Positions 16,516 to 24,874 of a stretch of 30,148 bases of DNA are shown here, piece by piece (position 1 is the stretch's first letter; each line of letters opens with the position of its first letter). The position numbers and the translations under genes are program-made. This DNA is from an uncultured delta proteobacterium. GTDB lineage: Bacteria; RBG-13-61-14; DRUE01. Below the pieces are notes generated by a model. It was given only the letters and a program-made list of their open reading frames with translations, was not told the DNA's origin and did no database searches. The stretch is taken from the NCBI GenBank assembly GCA_903930515.1, contig CAIYYW010000060.1, positions 1 to 30,148 of the forward strand, written 5' to 3'.

Positions 16516-16884
16516 CTAAGATCCCAATAGTTTTTTAACTTTGTTCCTTAATTCCTTGGGATCAAAAGGTTTCGGGATCAAGTCGTCTCCTCCGCTGGCC
16601 TTGGCAGTGGCTTCCACCGAGGCCTCGCCCCGGGCGGTAATGAATGCAATAATGATGTTTTTGGTTTCCGGGTTATTTTTCAGTTCCTTGCACACCCGGT
16701 ATCCGGTCATTCCCGGCATCATGATATCCAGGATAATCAAATCCGGATTGACGGTCCGGGCCAGATTCAGCGCTTCCACGCCATCGCCGGCCTCGTAAAA
16801 TTCATAAGGCTCTATTTGGAGGCAGATTTTAATCGCCTGCCGGATGAAGTCTTCGTCGTCCACAATCAAGATTTTTTTTGCCAT
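16516..16884 (-). CDS. Single-domain response regulator (CheY-like receiver) 1
   Basis: The 122 residues are a bare receiver. Asp9 and Asp10 form the acidic pocket and Asp53 in LIILDIMMPG is the phosphoacceptor; the Thr of FITARG and the Lys of PKPFDP complete the site. There is no output domain, so it acts by protein contact or in a phosphorelay. It aligns without gaps over its first 53 residues with the receiver at 17455-17826, a paralogue in the same operon. It is the last gene of the kinase operon, 61 bp after the ankyrin gene. The ribosome site is weak (GGGAT about eight bases upstream). An in-frame tail follows its TAG stop. Confidence 0.92.
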   Translation of the reverse strand: MAKKILIVDDEDFIRQAIKICLQIEPYEFYEAGDGVEALNLARTVNPDLIILDIMMPGMTGYRVCKELKNNPETKNIIIAFITARGEASVEATAKASGGDDLIPKPFDPKELRNKVKKLLGS

Positions 16885-16945
16885 ATTCTATCCCGCTCAG
16901 CGCTCAATTTTTTTCCCCATCTCTCCCCGGATAGCCCCCGGACCG

Positions 16946-17386
16946 TCATTCCAGGCCGCCTTTGCCGCGGAGCAGATCAATGAGTTCCTGGTTTTCATTC
17001 AAAACCGCGGTACGCAAAGGGGATATCCCGAAAATATCCCGGGCATTCACCTCCGCGCCCCGGTCCAGAAGCATTTTGGCAATCTCAACATCGCCGGTTA
17101 TGGCGGCCCAATGGAGCGGCGTTTCCCCGTCATGGTTCTTGCAGTTGAGATCGGCCTTATGGTTGAGCAAGAGTTCCACCACCTCCCGGTTGCACGAGAC
17201 CACGGCCCACAAAAGCGGGGTACTGCCATCCTCATCCTGGATATTTACCTTCGCCCCTTGGGCGAGCAATTGCTCGCAGCGTCGCTGGTCGCATTCGCCC
17301 GCGGTTTCTTTCAAGAGGCGCGCATCCTGCTCGGTCAAGCCTTTGCCCTTTGGGTTTTTTGGATCTCCGGGTTCTTGGTTTTCCAT
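16946..17386 (-). CDS. Ankyrin-repeat protein
   Basis: The 146-residue protein has about four ankyrin repeats after a hydrophilic first 20 residues. They fall at about 21-52, 53-85 (DGSTPLLWAVVSCNREVVELLL), 86-118 (DGETPLHWAAITGDVEIAKMLL) and 119-146. It has no signal peptide, so it is probably a cytoplasmic protein-protein adaptor. The ATG has GAGG six bases upstream. The 68 bp between it and the upstream receiver hold a 16-codon basic ORF (MKKEKRTNPSRRKKMR) ending on the ribosome site; I do not call it as a gene. Lying between two receivers, it is a candidate partner or scaffold for them. Confidence 0.9.
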   Translation of the reverse strand: MENQEPGDPKNPKGKGLTEQDARLLKETAGECDQRRCEQLLAQGAKVNIQDEDGSTPLLWAVVSCNREVVELLLNHKADLNCKNHDGETPLHWAAITGDVEIAKMLLDRGAEVNARDIFGISPLRTAVLNENQELIDLLRGKGGLE

Positions 17387-17454
17387 CTTTACCTCATCTT
17401 TTTCCGGCGGCTTGGATTTGTTCGCTTCTCTTTTTTCATCTTTGCGCCTGTGCC

Positions 17455-17826
17455 CTACTCTTGCTCCAGGAGTTTCCGGACTTTGGATCTAAGTTCCGCC
17501 GGAGTAAATGGTTTGACCAGGTAATCGTCTCCGCCTTTGAGTTCGCCGAGTCTTTGGGAAGGAGAACTTTTGCGGCCGGTCAGGAAGATCACCCGAATGC
17601 CTTGAGTCTCCGGGTCGGCTTTGATTTCCTCGCAGACCGCATACCCCCATTTATCCGGCAACATCAAATCCAGGATGATCAAATCCGGCTTGAGTTCCCT
17701 GGCCATCCTCAGGGTTGAATTGCCGTCCGCCGCTTCAAACATTTCGTAACGGTCGCTTTTCAGGCATTCCTTAACGGTTTTCCGGATGGTTTCTTCATCG
17801 TCCGCAATCAGGATCTTTTTAACCAT
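17455..17826 (-). CDS. Single-domain response regulator (CheY-like receiver) 2
   Basis: A 123-residue receiver with Asp9/Asp10, phosphoacceptor Asp53 (LIILDLMLPD), Thr in FLTGRK and Lys in YLVKPF. No output domain is attached. It follows the histidine kinase by 16 bp, with AAGGAG right after the kinase stop, so it is the most likely direct phosphate acceptor. It is a paralogue of the receiver at 16516-16884. The beta4-alpha4 region (GRKSSPSQRLGELKGGDDY) differs from its paralogue, so the two probably see different partners. Confidence 0.93.
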   Translation of the reverse strand: MVKKILIADDEETIRKTVKECLKSDRYEMFEAADGNSTLRMARELKPDLIILDLMLPDKWGYAVCEEIKADPETQGIRVIFLTGRKSSPSQRLGELKGGDDYLVKPFTPAELRSKVRKLLEQE

Positions 17827-17842
17827 TTGCGTGTCTCCTTTG

Positions 17843-20356
17843 CTATTTTTGCTCCTGGGCGAGCGGAACCAGGAAATAGAAATTGCTTCCCTTTCCCGGC
17901 TCGCTTTTCACCCCGACCCGTCCCCCGTGGAATTCCACGATCTGTCGGGCAAGGGCGAGGCCCAATCCGCTCCCCGAGAGCCTCTTCTCAGAAGGATTGT
18001 GCAATTGCGAGAATTTGTCAAATAATTTATCCTGCAGTTCCGCGGGAATGCCCGGACCGGTGTCGGAAACCGAAATCCGAGCCAAGTGGGCTCCGTCTTC
18101 CAAGGCCACCTCCAGTTCCACCAGAATCCGGCCTTGTTCCGGGGTGAATTTGATGGCATTGGACAGGAGATTGGCCAGGGCCTGAAGCATCCGGTCGCGG
18201 TTGCCCCGGATGATGATTTCCCGCTCCGGAACCTTCTTTTCCAATTTTAGGTTTTTTTCGCGGACCAGCCCCATAAAGGCCTCCACTGATTCATTGACCA
18301 GCCCCCTGAGCCCCAGATCGGTCAAGTCCATCTCCATCCTTCCCGCCTCAAAGCGCTGGATGTCTAGCAGGTCGTTAATGAGCCGGGTGAGCCGGTCGCT
18401 TTGCTGGAGAATTATATTGAGGTATTTTTTCTGGCTCTCTTCATCAATTTGGCCGATCTGTTCCCGCATGATTTCCGCATAGGCCTTGATCCCGGTCATG
18501 GGCGTGCGCAGGTCATGGGAGACCATGGACAGGAAATTGTCTTTCAATTCGTTGATCTTCTTGAGCTCCCGGTTGGAGATCTTCAGTTCCACCAATTTCT
18601 TTAATTCCTTGACCCGGTGGGCGTTCTCAATGGACATCGCGGTCTGCATCATCAAGGTCTGCAGCAACTCAATATCCTCGCTGGAATACCAGGCGCCGTT
18701 ATTTTTCGGCCCGAGCCCCAGTATTCCAGTCATCCGGATCTCATAATAAATGGGGATCAATAAAACCAGTTTCAGGTTTTTCATGAATTCAAGCATCGGC
18801 CCGCGTTCCGGATTGGGCGGTAACATCCGTTCCAGGTCATTGATCTGGATGCTTTTCCCGCTGGTTTCCATTAGATATTTTAAAAGATGATCGGTATTGG
18901 GCAGAACCTCAACCGGCAATTGGTCTTCCGGATTGTCCGCGTGGAGTTGCGCCCCTCGGGACGGGTCCCGAAGCACGGCCACCTTGAGGGAACCGCGATC
19001 CTTGTCCCGGAGCAGGATGCAGCCGTTTTGAATCTTGATTGAGTCCATCACCATATCCAGGATCTGCTTGAGCAGCGGCTCCAGCTCAATAATGCTGTTC
19101 AGGATCTTGGCGGCCCGGCGCAAAGTTTTCTGATATTCATATTTCTCGCCGAAAAACCTGCGCTCCAGAGCCTGATCAATCCTATTATGCAGGGGACGGA
19201 CCATGACCAGCATGATAAAAATGGTTATGACCGCGGCCACCTGCGAGGGCTGTCCGGTGATTTTTTCCAGGGACAGGCTCAGGCCGCTGATGAGCAGGAA
19301 CGAGACCACGATCACGAACATGCTGACGATGAGGTACCCGGCGCTCCTTCGGATCAGTACATCCACATCAAAAAGATTGTGTTTGATAATCGCGTAGGCC
19401 ACGCTCAGGGGAAAGGTCGCGAACAGAATGAACAACCAGAAGAAATTGAGGACCTTGAGGACCAGGGACGCGAACAGGCCGAAGCCGCCCAGGACTGCGG
19501 TAAGCGCAAAGGCGTAGACCACGATTTTGGCTCTTTGCCTGACCACCGCGTCCTGGGAGATGACAAAGGACCGGATCATAAGGATGGAGCCGAGCGCGAA
19601 GCCGAGTATGAGGTCGGCGAGGAAGATTTTATCCACGATCAGGAATTTGGAAAGCTGGGGCACATAGTGGATATAAAAGACGACCAGGGGAACGGTGGTT
19701 ACGACGATCAAAAAGATGACCGGTTTCTTGAATTTGAGTTCAACCGGGAAATAGAGGCTCAGCAGCAGGACCGTTGGTCCCAGAATGGTGAGAAAGACCA
19801 GGGGGAACAGGTTGGAATTGTCAATGCAATATCCGGGCGTGGCCACCATGGACAGGCCGGTGGTTCCCGCCAGGAGAAAGGCCCGGCTGGCGGAGTTGTT
19901 GGGTTTGAGAAAAAAGGCGGTCAGGCCGGCCAGGTAGTAAGCGGTGCCCATCAGCATCCAGATCAGGGTGATGGTCAGGTAATCCCGGAGGGTGAACAGT
20001 GGCACCGGGATGGTCAAACGGAACTCACGGTTTCCGCGCCTGATGGTATAGGTCAACGGGGTTCCCGGCCGGCTCGACCGTACCAAGGCCCGGACTTGTT
20101 CGGAATTGGATACCGGTTGCCCGTCCACCGCGAGCACAATGTCTCCGAATTTGACGCCCCGCTGAATGCCTTCCCATTGCGGCAGATAAATTACCGGCAC
20201 CAAATTATTGCGGAGCATTAAAAAACCAGGGAACGGGCGGTTAATGGAAGTGCGGGTGTGGAGGATGCAATGCAACGAAATAAAAACATAGAGGGCGGCC
20301 ATGCCCCCGATGACAATATTGCGGCCCCGATTCCCAATCTGGTATTTTCCAGTCAT
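17843..20356 (-). CDS. Multi-TM histidine kinase with PDZ and GAF domains
   Basis: This 837-residue kinase has a first membrane helix (about 13-33), an extracytoplasmic PDZ-like domain (about 54-116) with WEGIQRGVKFGDIVLAVDGQ, and about eight membrane segments to residue 370. A GAF domain (about 410-560) follows, then a HisKA domain with the phosphorylated His614 in SMVSHDLRTP. The HATPase domain has an N box near 735 (NLLSNAIKFTP), DTGPGIP and GSGLGLALA. I start at ATG 20354-20356 (MTGKYQIG), with AAGG upstream. An earlier ATG at 20380 overlaps the likely -10 box. The PDZ domain may sense an envelope ligand or peptide, while GAF adds a small-molecule or redox input. First gene of a kinase-receiver-ankyrin-receiver operon, divergent from the efflux operon. 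Confidence 0.92.
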   Translation of the reverse strand: MTGKYQIGNRGRNIVIGGMAALYVFISLHCILHTRTSINRPFPGFLMLRNNLVPVIYLPQWEGIQRGVKFGDIVLAVDGQPVSNSEQVRALVRSSRPGTPLTYTIRRGNREFRLTIPVPLFTLRDYLTITLIWMLMGTAYYLAGLTAFFLKPNNSASRAFLLAGTTGLSMVATPGYCIDNSNLFPLVFLTILGPTVLLLSLYFPVELKFKKPVIFLIVVTTVPLVVFYIHYVPQLSKFLIVDKIFLADLILGFALGSILMIRSFVISQDAVVRQRAKIVVYAFALTAVLGGFGLFASLVLKVLNFFWLFILFATFPLSVAYAIIKHNLFDVDVLIRRSAGYLIVSMFVIVVSFLLISGLSLSLEKITGQPSQVAAVITIFIMLVMVRPLHNRIDQALERRFFGEKYEYQKTLRRAAKILNSIIELEPLLKQILDMVMDSIKIQNGCILLRDKDRGSLKVAVLRDPSRGAQLHADNPEDQLPVEVLPNTDHLLKYLMETSGKSIQINDLERMLPPNPERGPMLEFMKNLKLVLLIPIYYEIRMTGILGLGPKNNGAWYSSEDIELLQTLMMQTAMSIENAHRVKELKKLVELKISNRELKKINELKDNFLSMVSHDLRTPMTGIKAYAEIMREQIGQIDEESQKKYLNIILQQSDRLTRLINDLLDIQRFEAGRMEMDLTDLGLRGLVNESVEAFMGLVREKNLKLEKKVPEREIIIRGNRDRMLQALANLLSNAIKFTPEQGRILVELEVALEDGAHLARISVSDTGPGIPAELQDKLFDKFSQLHNPSEKRLSGSGLGLALARQIVEFHGGRVGVKSEPGKGSNFYFLVPLAQEQK

Positions 20357-20408: not shown

Positions 20409-20584
20409 TTCCCCCAAAATCCGCGATGGTAATTTGGGTGGATTCGGGCCACGCCGAAAACTGTCCCCCCAGAGGGCATTGTCCCGGTTTTCAGACCCTG
20501 ATCAATGACTGGGAGAATTTCTTCAGCTACTACGGCTGCCAGGCCGGGTTTCGCGGCATCTATTCAAAAAGTCCCAAAATGTTT

Positions 20585-20590
20585 TATAAT
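20585..20590 (+). promoter_or_regulatory. Candidate -10 box of the efflux operon
   Basis: A perfect TATAAT lies 30 bp upstream of the membrane-fusion gene ATG. No good -35 is visible at normal distance, so an activator may be needed, or the match may be chance. Confidence 0.35.
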
Positions 20591-20620
20591 CAGTTCCAGT
20601 TGAAAAAGCGGGGGAGTTGG

Positions 20621-21769
20621 ATGATAAAATTAAAGGTCAGGATTATTGCAGGCTGCTTGGGCTGGTATTTGGCTGTTTCCGGGATGGCGGTTTTGTCCGG
20701 TTGTTCCCGAGGCCAATCCAACGCTTCGCTTCACGAAATGAAGGCCCCGGTCAAGGTCGCCGTGGTCCAGAGCAAGGACATCCCGGTGGAGGTCTCGGAG
20801 ATCGGCGCGGTTGAAGCGATTTCATCGGTGGAAATCAAGTCGCAGGTCACCGGTTATCTGACCGGGATCTATTTCCAGGAAGGCCAGGAGGTAAAGGGGG
20901 GGGATTTATTGTTTCAAATTGACCCGAGGCCGTATCAAAATAATCTCGCGCAACTCCAAGCCAACCTCGCCAAAGACCGCTCCCAGATGGAAAACGCGCA
21001 GGTGGAATCCGACCGGTACGATCAGTTGATCAAGAAGGACTTGATCTCCAAAGAGCAATCCGACCAGGTGCGCACCAACTGGGAAGCCCTGAAAGGGGTG
21101 GTTAAATCGGACCAAGCCGCGCTTAGGAACGCTTCTCTTCAGTTGTCTTACTGCGCCATTTCCGCTCCCATCGCCGGAAGGACCGGGGCCCTGTTCGCTC
21201 ACAAGGGGGACCTGGTGAAAGAGAACGATACCGGCTCATTGGTCGTGATCAACCAGTTGCAGCCAATTTATGTCAGCTTTGCGGTGCCGGAGCAATACCT
21301 TGCTGAAATCAGGAAATATAATGAAAGCGGAGAGCTGGAAGTGCTGGTGTCTATTCCAGGCCGGGGGTCTGCCGGGCCGGAGCTTGCGGGCAAGCTCAGC
21401 TTCATTGACAACGCGGTTGACCGCGCCACCGGGACCATCCGGCTCAAGGCCACTTTTGCCAACGAGCAAGAGCTGCTTTGGCCGGGGCAATTCGTGGACT
21501 CCAAACTGAAATTATCCACCAGGAAGAATGCCACGGTGGTTTCCGGACAGGCGGTCCAGACCGGACAGAACGGTCAATATGTATATGTGGTCAAGCCGGA
21601 CCTGTCCGTGGAAATGCGCCCGGTGGTATCCTCCGGAACGGTCAATGACGATGCGGTGATTGAGAAAGGGCTGGTTCCGGGGGAAAAAGTGGTCACGGAC
21701 GGACAACTACGATTATTCCCGGGGGCGAAAGTAGAGATCCAGGAACCCCAAACCCCCAAGGGCAACTGA
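20621..21769 (+). CDS. RND efflux membrane-fusion lipoprotein (HlyD/MdtA type)
   Basis: The 382-residue adaptor has a lipoprotein signal with lipobox VLSGC. A barrel-sandwich (lipoyl) half ending SQVTGYLTGIYFQEGQEV follows, then a helical hairpin rich in Gln and Lys (LAQLQANLAKDRSQMENAQVE...). The second lipoyl half is ISAPIAGRTGALF, and beta-barrel and membrane-proximal domains complete it. It links an inner-membrane RND pump to an outer-membrane channel. I start at ATG 20621: GGGGAG lies five bases upstream and a signal sequence follows. A 65-residue upstream in-frame stretch is not protein-like. The RND permease begins six bases after its stop. No TolC-type gene is in the window. Confidence 0.94.
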   Translation: MIKLKVRIIAGCLGWYLAVSGMAVLSGCSRGQSNASLHEMKAPVKVAVVQSKDIPVEVSEIGAVEAISSVEIKSQVTGYLTGIYFQEGQEVKGGDLLFQIDPRPYQNNLAQLQANLAKDRSQMENAQVESDRYDQLIKKDLISKEQSDQVRTNWEALKGVVKSDQAALRNASLQLSYCAISAPIAGRTGALFAHKGDLVKENDTGSLVVINQLQPIYVSFAVPEQYLAEIRKYNESGELEVLVSIPGRGSAGPELAGKLSFIDNAVDRATGTIRLKATFANEQELLWPGQFVDSKLKLSTRKNATVVSGQAVQTGQNGQYVYVVKPDLSVEMRPVVSSGTVNDDAVIEKGLVPGEKVVTDGQLRLFPGAKVEIQEPQTPKGN

Positions 21770-21775
21770 GACTCT

Positions 21776-24700
21776 ATGAATATCACGGAGCTTTTCATCC
21801 GCCGTCCCGTAATGACCACCCTGGTGATGTCTGCGATCCTGATCTTCGGCGTGGTCAGCTTCAGGCTGCTCCCGGTGAGCGACCTCCCCAATGTGGACTT
21901 CCCGACGATTTCCGTATCCGCCTCGCTGCCGGGCGCCAACCCGGACACCATGGCCGCGGCGGTGGCCACCCCTCTGGAGCGCCAGTTTTCCAACATCGCC
22001 GGACTGGACTCGATGAGTTCCTCTTCCGGACTGGGCTCCACCCAGATCGTGCTCCAATTCAATCTCAGCCGGAACATAGACGCCGCAGCCCAGGATGTGC
22101 AAGCCGCAATCGCAAAGGCCTCCCGCCAGTTGCCCCCGGAGATGCGCACCCCGCCTTCCTATCAGAAGGTCAATCCCGCGGATTCGCCCATCCTTTACCT
22201 GACGCTCGGCTCGGCGACCCTGCCGCTTTCCGCGGTGGACGAATACGCGGAAACACTGCTGGCCCAACGGATCTCAATGGTCAGCGGGGTGGCGCAGGTG
22301 CAGGTATTCGGTTCTCAAAAATATGCCGTGCGCATCCAGCTTGATCCGAATCTTCTTGCCGCCAGGGGTATCGGCATAGATGAGGTGGCCTCCGCGGTGG
22401 ACCAGCAAAATGTCAACCTTCCCGCGGGCGTGCTCCAGGGAAATTTCAAAGCCTACACCATTGAAGCGAACGGACAGCTTGCCACCTCGGCCGAGTATCG
22501 TTCCCTGATTGTCACCTACCGGAACGGCTCGCCGGTGAGGCTCCAGGACCTGGGGCAGGTGCTGGACTCGGTGGAAAACGATCGGGTGGCCAACTGGTAC
22601 AACGGCTCCCGCGCGATTATGCTCGCGGTTCAGCGCCAACCCGGAACCAATACCGTGAAGGTAGTGGACGGCATCCGGAAAATACTGCCCTCCTTTAAGC
22701 AGCAACTGCCCGCCTCAGTCAACCTGGACCTGATGTATGACCGGTCCCAGACCATCCGCCAATCCGTTAACGATGTTGAGTTCACCCTCCTGCTCGCCAT
22801 CGGCCTGGTGGTGCTGGTGATTTTCCTGTTCCTGAGAAATCTCTCCGCCACCATCATTCCCAGCCTGGCGCTCCCCATCTCCATCATCGGCACTTTCGCG
22901 GTGATGTATTTACTCGGGTTCAACCTGGACAACCTCTCCCTGATGGCCTTGATCCTGGCGGTGGGATTCATCGTGGATGACGCGATCGTGATGCTGGAAA
23001 ACATCGTGCGCCACGCCGAAGCCGGGCAGGGGATTATGGACGCGGCATTGGACGGCTCCAAGGAAATTACCTTTACCATCATCTCAATGACCCTATCCCT
23101 GGTCGCGGTGTTTGTGCCGGTATTGTTTATGGGAGGAATCCTGGGAAGATTGTTCCACGAATTCGCCATTACCATTGCCGTGGCCATTCTTGTTTCCGGC
23201 CTGGTCTCCCTGACCCTTACCCCGATGCTCTCCTCCCGGTTCCTAAAACACCAGACCCAGGCGGAGGGAGAGCGCCACAAGCTCTATCAAGTTTCCGAGC
23301 AGGCCTTCAACACCCTGCTCCGGGGATACGATTCAAGCTTGAAATGGGCGATCCGCCACCGCCTGCTCACGCTGATCGTGGCGATTATTTTCCTTTTCTT
23401 GTCCGGATACCTATTTCTGGTCGTCCCGAAAGGTTTTATTCCCAGCGAAGATGCCGGCTTGCTCCGGGGGGTCACCGAAGCCAGCCAGGGAATCTCGTTT
23501 GAGTCAATGAAAAAACATCAGTTGGAAATAGCCAAAATCATCAGCCAGGACCCGAATGTGGAATCGTTTATGTCCAATGTCGGCTCCGGCGGGGGAGCCG
23601 GCAACGCCGGGCGGCTTTTTCTCAAGCTCAAGCCGGCCAAGATGAGGAAATTGAACGCGGACCAGGTGGTTCAGGAACTTCGTCCCAAACTGGCCTCTGT
23701 TCCCGGGATCAAGGTTTATTTGCAAAATCCGCCCACCATCGCGATCGGAGGGATGCAGTCCAAGAGCCAGTATCAATTCACTTTGCAGAGCACCAGTTCA
23801 GAGGAGCTTTATAAATGGGAGCCGGTCCTGGAATTGAAACTAAAGGAATTACCCGCGCTCCAGGATGTTAACAGCGACCTCCTGATCGCCAACCCCCGGG
23901 TCAATGTGGCAATAGACCGGGACAAAGCCTCCAGCCTGGGAGTGACCGCGGAGCAGGTGGAAAACGCCTTTTATACCGCTTACGGCACCCGCCAGGTCTC
24001 AACCATCCTCACCGCCAGCAACGAGTACCAGGTGATCCTGGAACTGGAAGACCAATACCAGATGGACCCCTCCGCGATGTCGCGCCTTTATATCCGGTCC
24101 TCAAGCGGGGCCCTGGTGCCGCTGGAAAGCGTGGCCACTTTGAAATCTTCGGTCGGGCCGGCCACCGTCAACCATATCGGGCAACTGCCCTCGGTGACCA
24201 TCTCCTTCAACCTCGCCCCGGGAGCTTCCCTGGGAGACGCCCTTGCCGAAATTCAGAAAATCGCCAATCAGACCCTTCCCGGAACCATCGTCACCGGTTT
24301 CCAGGGAGCCGCCCAGGCCTTCCAAGCCTCGCTCCAGGGATTATGGGTGCTCCTGATCCTGGCCATCCTGGTGATTTACCTCGTGCTCGGAATTCTGTAT
24401 GAAAGTTTTATTCATCCCATCGTTATCCTCTCCGCGCTTCCCTTTGCCGGGGTCGGCGCCCTGATCACCCTGATGATCTTCCGGACCGACCTCAGCATCT
24501 ACGCCTTCGTGGGGGTGATCATGCTGGTCGGATTGGTAAAGAAAAACGGGATTATGATGATTGACTTCGCGCTCGCGGCTGAGCGGACGGAAAAAATGGA
24601 GCCGGCTGAAGCCATCTACCAGGCCTGCCTGATCCGGTTCCGACCGATTATGATGACCACTATGAGCGCCCTGATGGGGACCCTCCCCATCGCGGTCGGG

Positions 24701-24874
24701 TTCGGCGCCGGCGCCTCTTCCCGCCGCCCCCTCGGACTGGCCGTGGTCGGGGGCCTCTTGTTTTCCCAGGCCCTCACCCTCTATGTCACGCCCGTGGTTT
24801 ATATCTATATGGACGCGCTCCAGAGGCGCTTCCGTTCCCGGAAAAAATCTCCGCCCGAGAACCAGCCCGAATAG
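21776..24874 (+). CDS. RND multidrug efflux permease, MdtB/MdtC-like
   Basis: The 1032-residue length is typical of HAE1 permeases. The N-terminus NITELFIRRPVMTTLVMSA and the porter segment PPSYQKVNPADSPILYL resemble MdtB/MdtC closely. The proton-relay residues are present: Asp401 and Asp402 in VGFIVDDAIVMLEN, and Lys923 in GLVKKNGIMMIDFA. Twelve membrane segments and two large periplasmic loops can be traced. The pump uses the proton gradient to export lipophilic compounds such as bile salts or drugs; its substrate here is not predictable. Only one permease gene is present, whereas MdtBC uses two, so it is probably a homotrimer. It is co-transcribed with the adaptor gene. Confidence 0.96.
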   Translation: MNITELFIRRPVMTTLVMSAILIFGVVSFRLLPVSDLPNVDFPTISVSASLPGANPDTMAAAVATPLERQFSNIAGLDSMSSSSGLGSTQIVLQFNLSRNIDAAAQDVQAAIAKASRQLPPEMRTPPSYQKVNPADSPILYLTLGSATLPLSAVDEYAETLLAQRISMVSGVAQVQVFGSQKYAVRIQLDPNLLAARGIGIDEVASAVDQQNVNLPAGVLQGNFKAYTIEANGQLATSAEYRSLIVTYRNGSPVRLQDLGQVLDSVENDRVANWYNGSRAIMLAVQRQPGTNTVKVVDGIRKILPSFKQQLPASVNLDLMYDRSQTIRQSVNDVEFTLLLAIGLVVLVIFLFLRNLSATIIPSLALPISIIGTFAVMYLLGFNLDNLSLMALILAVGFIVDDAIVMLENIVRHAEAGQGIMDAALDGSKEITFTIISMTLSLVAVFVPVLFMGGILGRLFHEFAITIAVAILVSGLVSLTLTPMLSSRFLKHQTQAEGERHKLYQVSEQAFNTLLRGYDSSLKWAIRHRLLTLIVAIIFLFLSGYLFLVVPKGFIPSEDAGLLRGVTEASQGISFESMKKHQLEIAKIISQDPNVESFMSNVGSGGGAGNAGRLFLKLKPAKMRKLNADQVVQELRPKLASVPGIKVYLQNPPTIAIGGMQSKSQYQFTLQSTSSEELYKWEPVLELKLKELPALQDVNSDLLIANPRVNVAIDRDKASSLGVTAEQVENAFYTAYGTRQVSTILTASNEYQVILELEDQYQMDPSAMSRLYIRSSSGALVPLESVATLKSSVGPATVNHIGQLPSVTISFNLAPGASLGDALAEIQKIANQTLPGTIVTGFQGAAQAFQASLQGLWVLLILAILVIYLVLGILYESFIHPIVILSALPFAGVGALITLMIFRTDLSIYAFVGVIMLVGLVKKNGIMMIDFALAAERTEKMEPAEAIYQACLIRFRPIMMTTMSALMGTLPIAVGFGAGASSRRPLGLAVVGGLLFSQALTLYVTPVVYIYMDALQRRFRSRKKSPPENQPE

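What the first reader, a model, noticed from the sequence alone, without database searches (positions are those of the whole stretch)
16516..20356. Kinase-receiver-ankyrin-receiver operon with no DNA-binding output
A PDZ/multi-TM/GAF histidine kinase is followed by a bare receiver, a four-repeat ankyrin protein and a second bare receiver. The ankyrin protein may be the effector or scaffold that reads receiver phosphorylation, an arrangement I do not recognise as a described system.
Basis: partly seen in the sequence, partly recalled or inferred. Interest (0 to 1): 0.6.

Follow-up and report, generated by a model that had tools for sequence, protein, structure and literature searches.

The report
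Kinase-receiver-ankyrin signalling cassette in Coxosiota
In a barely known bacterial phylum, a membrane sensor kinase and its stand-alone receiver proteins travel together with a small ankyrin-repeat binding protein, so the signal may be passed on by protein binding rather than by a DNA-binding regulator; this part is inferred, not shown.

Summary
On the minus strand, 20356-16516, four co-directional genes encode a PDZ/10-TM/GAF histidine kinase, a bare receiver, a pure four-repeat ankyrin protein and a second bare receiver. No output domain is present and all phosphotransfer residues are intact.

The linkage is real beyond this genome. The only other genome of the phylum (Candidatus Coxosiota, RBG-13-61-14) with the ankyrin family has it twice, each time in the same cassette: kinase-receiver-ankyrin, and kinase-receiver-receiver-ankyrin-receiver. 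Proteins are 48-59% identical to the window's, and the flanking genes differ entirely. The conserved core is kinase + receiver 1 + ankyrin; the second receiver is optional. The nearest other ankyrins score 102 bits against 261-278. Among 104 control ankyrin loci from 56 genomes, none has a receiver gene beside it on the same strand.

The sensor half is common elsewhere, fused to cyclases or kinases; only here was it found with an ankyrin.

Best model: the ankyrin is a dedicated, non-catalytic partner of receiver 1, a CheY-like protein-protein output or scaffold. Direct binding and its dependence on phosphorylation are untested, because no complex prediction was available. I call it a new variant of a known kind, of moderate interest.

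The parts
17843..20356 (-). Histidine kinase, 837 aa: TM1, PDZ (probably extracytoplasmic), nine further TM helices, cytoplasmic GAF, HisKA, HATPase_c
   Evidence: Pfam; H/N/G1/F/G2 boxes; ten long helices in the model and hydropathy; orthologues L038 53% and L039 48%
17455..17826 (-). REC1, stand-alone receiver, 123 aa, intact phospho-acceptor site; conserved partner in all three cassettes
   Evidence: Pfam; REC1 clade, bootstrap 97 / SH-aLRT 91, with L038 and L039 REC1
16946..17386 (-). Four-repeat ankyrin protein, 146 aa, no other domain, acidic (net charge -9)
   Evidence: Pfam; model pLDDT 90.6 with four helix pairs; family gap 261-278 vs 102 bits; charge
16516..16884 (-). REC2, second stand-alone receiver, 122 aa, intact site; variable member (absent in L038, other receivers in L039)
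   Evidence: Pfam; tree places it with REC2/REC3 of L039, weakly

Best explanation
This is a self-contained two-component cassette. A membrane histidine kinase senses an unknown signal through its PDZ/10-TM/GAF module and phosphorylates the stand-alone receiver REC1 (REC2 as second target or phosphate sink). The signal is read by protein-protein contact: the small ankyrin protein is a dedicated, non-catalytic partner that binds REC1 depending on its phosphorylation, and so either carries the output to a third protein (adaptor) or holds kinase and receivers together (scaffold). Shown: the genes, intact phosphotransfer residues, absence of an output domain, the conserved linkage, and that the ankyrin is predicted to be a pure binding fold. 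Inferred: phosphotransfer within the cassette (standard for adjacent HK and REC genes), and that the ankyrin's target is the receiver.
For: The cassette is kept at three loci with 48-59% protein identity while all neighbours differ. The ankyrin (56/54%) is as conserved as HK (53/48%) and REC1 (59/54%). REC1 sequences form one clade (97/91) among receivers of the phylum, consistent with HK, REC1 and ANK inherited as a unit. All 3 ankyrins of the family are beside a receiver; of 104 control ankyrin loci in 56 genomes none has a co-directional receiver neighbour. ANK is a four-repeat fold without catalytic domain, whose nearest solved structures are designed binders (DARPins). Seven residues invariant in the family but rare (14% or less) at the same columns of other ankyrins (E52, W60, E88, W93, F119, R125, L129) lie mostly at ankyrin repeat positions that form the usual target-binding face (mapping by repeat consensus; inference).
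Against: No direct evidence for ANK-REC contact. Only two genomes carry the cassette, so the three loci are not independent of common descent. The same-genus genome G001 lacks HK and ANK, though it is only 87% complete. ANK and receivers are all net acidic, so no simple charge complementarity supports binding. L038 and L039 have different genes after the cassette, so no common downstream effector is visible.
Confidence: 0.5

Rival explanations
1. ANK acts on the kinase (inhibitor, activator or localiser of the HK) or modulates receiver dephosphorylation; it regulates the relay rather than being its output, and the receivers act on a distant target as in CheY- or MrrA-like networks.
For: HK, REC1 and ANK are equally constant, so linkage cannot tell which of them is the partner. 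The genome holds 42 receiver matches, many of them on ORFs over 200 aa, so distant outputs exist. Repeat proteins that act on receivers by dephosphorylation are known (Rap-Spo0F, PMC3601965).
Against: The ANK gene lies after REC1 and, in two of three loci, between receiver genes, which favours a receiver partner only weakly. No catalytic element is recognised in ANK.
Confidence: 0.25
2. ANK is co-expressed with the relay but acts on an unrelated protein; the receivers signal elsewhere and there is only a regulon-level link.
For: Nothing tested shows physical contact. In L038 a PI-PLC-like ORF overlaps the ANK stop codon (ATGA), so other genes can join the transcript.
Against: The operon has no recognisable transcriptional output of its own, and ANK has stayed with HK-REC through divergence and duplication while other neighbours have not.
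Confidence: 0.17
3. Chance neighbourhood: an ordinary ankyrin gene inserted into an HK-REC-REC operon.
For: HK-REC-REC operons without ankyrin exist in this phylum (L057 in G001, L059 in G000). Ankyrin matches are numerous in the G002 genome (24 matches).
Against: The same ankyrin family is found at three loci in the same place; control ankyrins are not beside receivers.
Confidence: 0.06

Closest known systems
Single-domain response regulator pathways (CheY; EpsW-EpsZ of Myxococcus, PMC12802240; MrrA of Caulobacter, PMC5964349)
   Same: Histidine kinase signals to a bare receiver whose output is a protein contact, not DNA binding
   Different: Here the candidate contact partner is a dedicated ankyrin-repeat protein encoded beside the receivers; in EpsW it is a membrane glycosyl transferase, in MrrA it is kinases and phosphotransferases
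Rap proteins acting on the bare receiver Spo0F (PMC3601965)
   Same: A helical-repeat protein acting on a bare receiver
   Different: Rap proteins are TPR proteins with an N-terminal 3-helix bundle carrying a catalytic glutamine and a peptide-binding site; the protein here is a four-repeat ankyrin with no such part, and it is linked to the kinase
Receptor-type cyclases with the same PDZ/TM/GAF sensor (L040, L041, L043; truncated at the contig start in L048 and L050)
   Same: Homologous sensor half (L040 42% identical over the sensor) including the KHNLFDVD motif
   Different: Output is a class III adenylate/guanylate cyclase domain instead of a kinase with receivers and ankyrin

Membership tests
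Two-component system (HisKA histidine kinase + receiver) | Kinase with H, N, G1, F and G2 boxes | tested here: met
   Pfam HisKA/HATPase_c and motif positions
Two-component system (HisKA histidine kinase + receiver) | Receiver with acidic pair, phospho-acceptor Asp, Thr/Ser and Lys | tested here: met
   All six receivers of the three cassettes
Two-component system (HisKA histidine kinase + receiver) | Phosphotransfer from this kinase to these receivers | not testable with these tools
   Needs purified proteins
Single-domain response regulator | Receiver domain fills the protein, no output domain | tested here: met
   123 and 122 aa, one PF00072 match from residue 5 to 117
Ankyrin repeat protein | Tandem 33-residue helix-loop-helix repeats | tested here: met
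   Pfam, AlphaFold model with four helix pairs, Foldseek to DARPins
Rap-type receiver phosphatase | TPR domain plus 3-helix bundle with catalytic Gln | tested here: not met
   ANK consists of ankyrin repeats only

The most novel reading that the evidence does not exclude
An ankyrin-repeat protein is the direct, dedicated output of a bacterial phosphorelay: it binds the phosphorylated stand-alone receiver and passes the signal on, a way of reading receiver phosphorylation not described so far as I could find.
Probability: 0.35. Interest if true: 0.6.

Novelty: new variant of a known kind. Interest (0 to 1): 0.42.

Why it matters
How bare receivers pass on their signal is unknown in many cases, because the partner is encoded elsewhere. 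Here a small, soluble, easily expressed candidate partner is encoded next to the receiver and has stayed there through divergence to about 55% identity, so the question can be tested with three small proteins. It would also give a natural ankyrin binder of a receiver domain. The phylum (Candidatus Coxosiota, three genomes) has no described signalling system that I could find.

Tried and rejected
Chance or plain hitchhiking: rejected by conserved linkage in three loci and by control ankyrin loci. A catalytic ankyrin protein: rejected, no extra domain. A shared downstream effector enzyme: rejected, the following genes differ (PI-PLC-like in L038, a weak GH127-like match below its curated cut-off in L039, convergent RRM gene in the window). 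Conserved wider synteny: not found, flanking genes are scattered in G001 and G002. Orthologues in other phyla: none in the sampled genomes (386 mostly distant, 95 of the G086 phylum, 9 of the G266 phylum). Sensor fold: model too weak (mean pLDDT 63) for a fold search. Charge complementarity of ANK and receivers: none. Promoter and terminator scans were no better than shuffles.

Full report
WHAT IS THERE. The four genes lie on the minus strand, 20356 to 16516, in the order kinase, receiver 1, ankyrin, receiver 2, with gaps of 16, 68 and 61 nt. Pfam finds PDZ, GAF, HisKA and HATPase_c in the kinase, one receiver domain filling each of the two small proteins, and only ankyrin repeats in the third. 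Kinase boxes and the receiver active-site residues are intact. The sensor model shows ten long hydrophobic helices with the PDZ domain between the first and second; its confidence is modest (mean pLDDT 63). The ankyrin model is confident (90.6): four helix pairs, no further domain, and a disordered N-terminus of 15 residues. Its nearest solved structures are designed ankyrin binders.

WHERE IT COMES FROM. The window's genome has only two other genomes in its phylum. The cassette's relatives lie in MAG RBG_13_61_14. A review lists phylum RBG-13-61-14 = Candidatus Coxosiota with three genomes of 3.65-4.74 Mb from freshwater and subsurface sediments (PMC11382960), which fits the sizes here (3.65, 4.4 and 4.7 Mb). 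The assignment of the window to this phylum is therefore an inference from these two facts.

IS THE LINKAGE REAL. In RBG_13_61_14 the ankyrin family occurs twice, and both copies lie in the same kind of cassette: L038 kinase-receiver-ankyrin, and L039 kinase-receiver-receiver-ankyrin-receiver. Identities to the window are 53/48% (kinase), 59/54% (receiver 1) and 56/54% (ankyrin). In a tree of receivers from the three genomes, the first receivers of the three cassettes form a clade (bootstrap 97, SH-aLRT 91). The optional receivers group with each other and with one orphan receiver (support 90/45, weak). The neighbours differ: an amidase and a PI-PLC-like gene in L038, an acyl-CoA dehydrogenase-like gene and another gene in L039, an RND efflux pair and an RRM gene in the window. 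The window's flanking genes lie on other contigs in the relatives. A profile of the three ankyrins scores 261-278 bits on them and at most 102 bits elsewhere in 386 genomes, with no orthologue in two more phyla. Of 104 control ankyrin loci from 56 genomes, two contain any receiver: one on the opposite strand in a convergent kinase gene (L174), one over 3 kb away (L175); none has a co-directional receiver neighbour. These controls are mostly the best-scoring ankyrins, not a random sample, and most loci show only 1.5 kb on each side. The same-genus genome G001 has neither kinase orthologue nor ankyrin, but it is 87% complete and in 820 contigs, so its absence is not firm.

WHAT VARIES. The constant core is kinase, receiver 1 and ankyrin. 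The number of further receivers is 0, 1 or 2.

THE SENSOR HALF IS NOT SPECIAL. A profile of the PDZ-TM-GAF half finds matches in 89 of 386 genomes (shorter matches may be to the GAF part only). It is fused to a class III cyclase in L040, L041, L043, L048 and L050 and L146, and to kinases, some beside receivers with other outputs, in L147, L149, L150, L152, L159 and others. Within the flanks seen, only the Coxosiota cassettes pair it with an ankyrin. The input module is thus general and the ankyrin is the special part.

HOW IT MOST LIKELY WORKS. Adjacent kinase and receiver genes normally form a phosphorelay (established knowledge). With no DNA-binding or enzymatic domain in the operon, the signal most simply leaves by contact. 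The ankyrin protein has no catalytic part and is the only constant non-relay gene. Family-specific invariant residues (E52, W60, E88, W93, F119, R125, L129; rare in 213 control repeat stretches) fall mostly on repeat positions that usually face the target, which suggests a conserved partner. I therefore favour a receiver-binding adaptor or scaffold (0.5). Next come an ankyrin acting on the kinase or on dephosphorylation (0.25), a regulon-level link only (0.17) and chance (0.06). Direct binding was not tested: the tools fold single chains only, and three sequences do not allow co-variation.

COMPARISON. It works like single-domain response regulator pathways such as CheY or EpsW-EpsZ (PMC12802240) and MrrA (PMC5964349). 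The idea of a repeat protein acting on a bare receiver has a precedent in Rap-Spo0F (PMC3601965), but membership there fails because the domains differ. Five text searches found no described kinase-receiver-ankyrin system. The library holds open-access papers only, so this is not proof of novelty.

Noticed in passing
L040 5941-8436, L041, L043, L048, L050; L146: The PDZ/multi-TM/GAF sensor with the invariant KHNLFDVD motif is fused to a class III adenylate/guanylate cyclase domain in several phyla; no Pfam model covers the TM part.
   Followed up: partly
L038 9406-10425: A PI-PLC-like ORF starts on the stop codon of the ankyrin gene (ATGA overlap), as if translationally coupled; its true start may lie further downstream.
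   Followed up: partly
L057 (G001) and L059 (G000 contig C168): Other kinase-receiver-receiver operons with bare receivers and no ankyrin exist in the phylum.
   Followed up: partly
L083 and L091 (G355, G226), and L181 and others: Arrays of several tandem ankyrin genes of about 300 aa in one family of another phylum.
   Followed up: no
window 20426-24874 (+): A divergently transcribed HlyD-type adaptor and AcrB-type RND pump gene pair starts next to the kinase gene; this neighbourhood is not kept in relatives.
   Followed up: partly
L126 1501-1983 (G002 contig C79): An orphan 161-aa receiver groups with the cassette's optional receivers (weak support), with no ankyrin nearby.
   Followed up: partly
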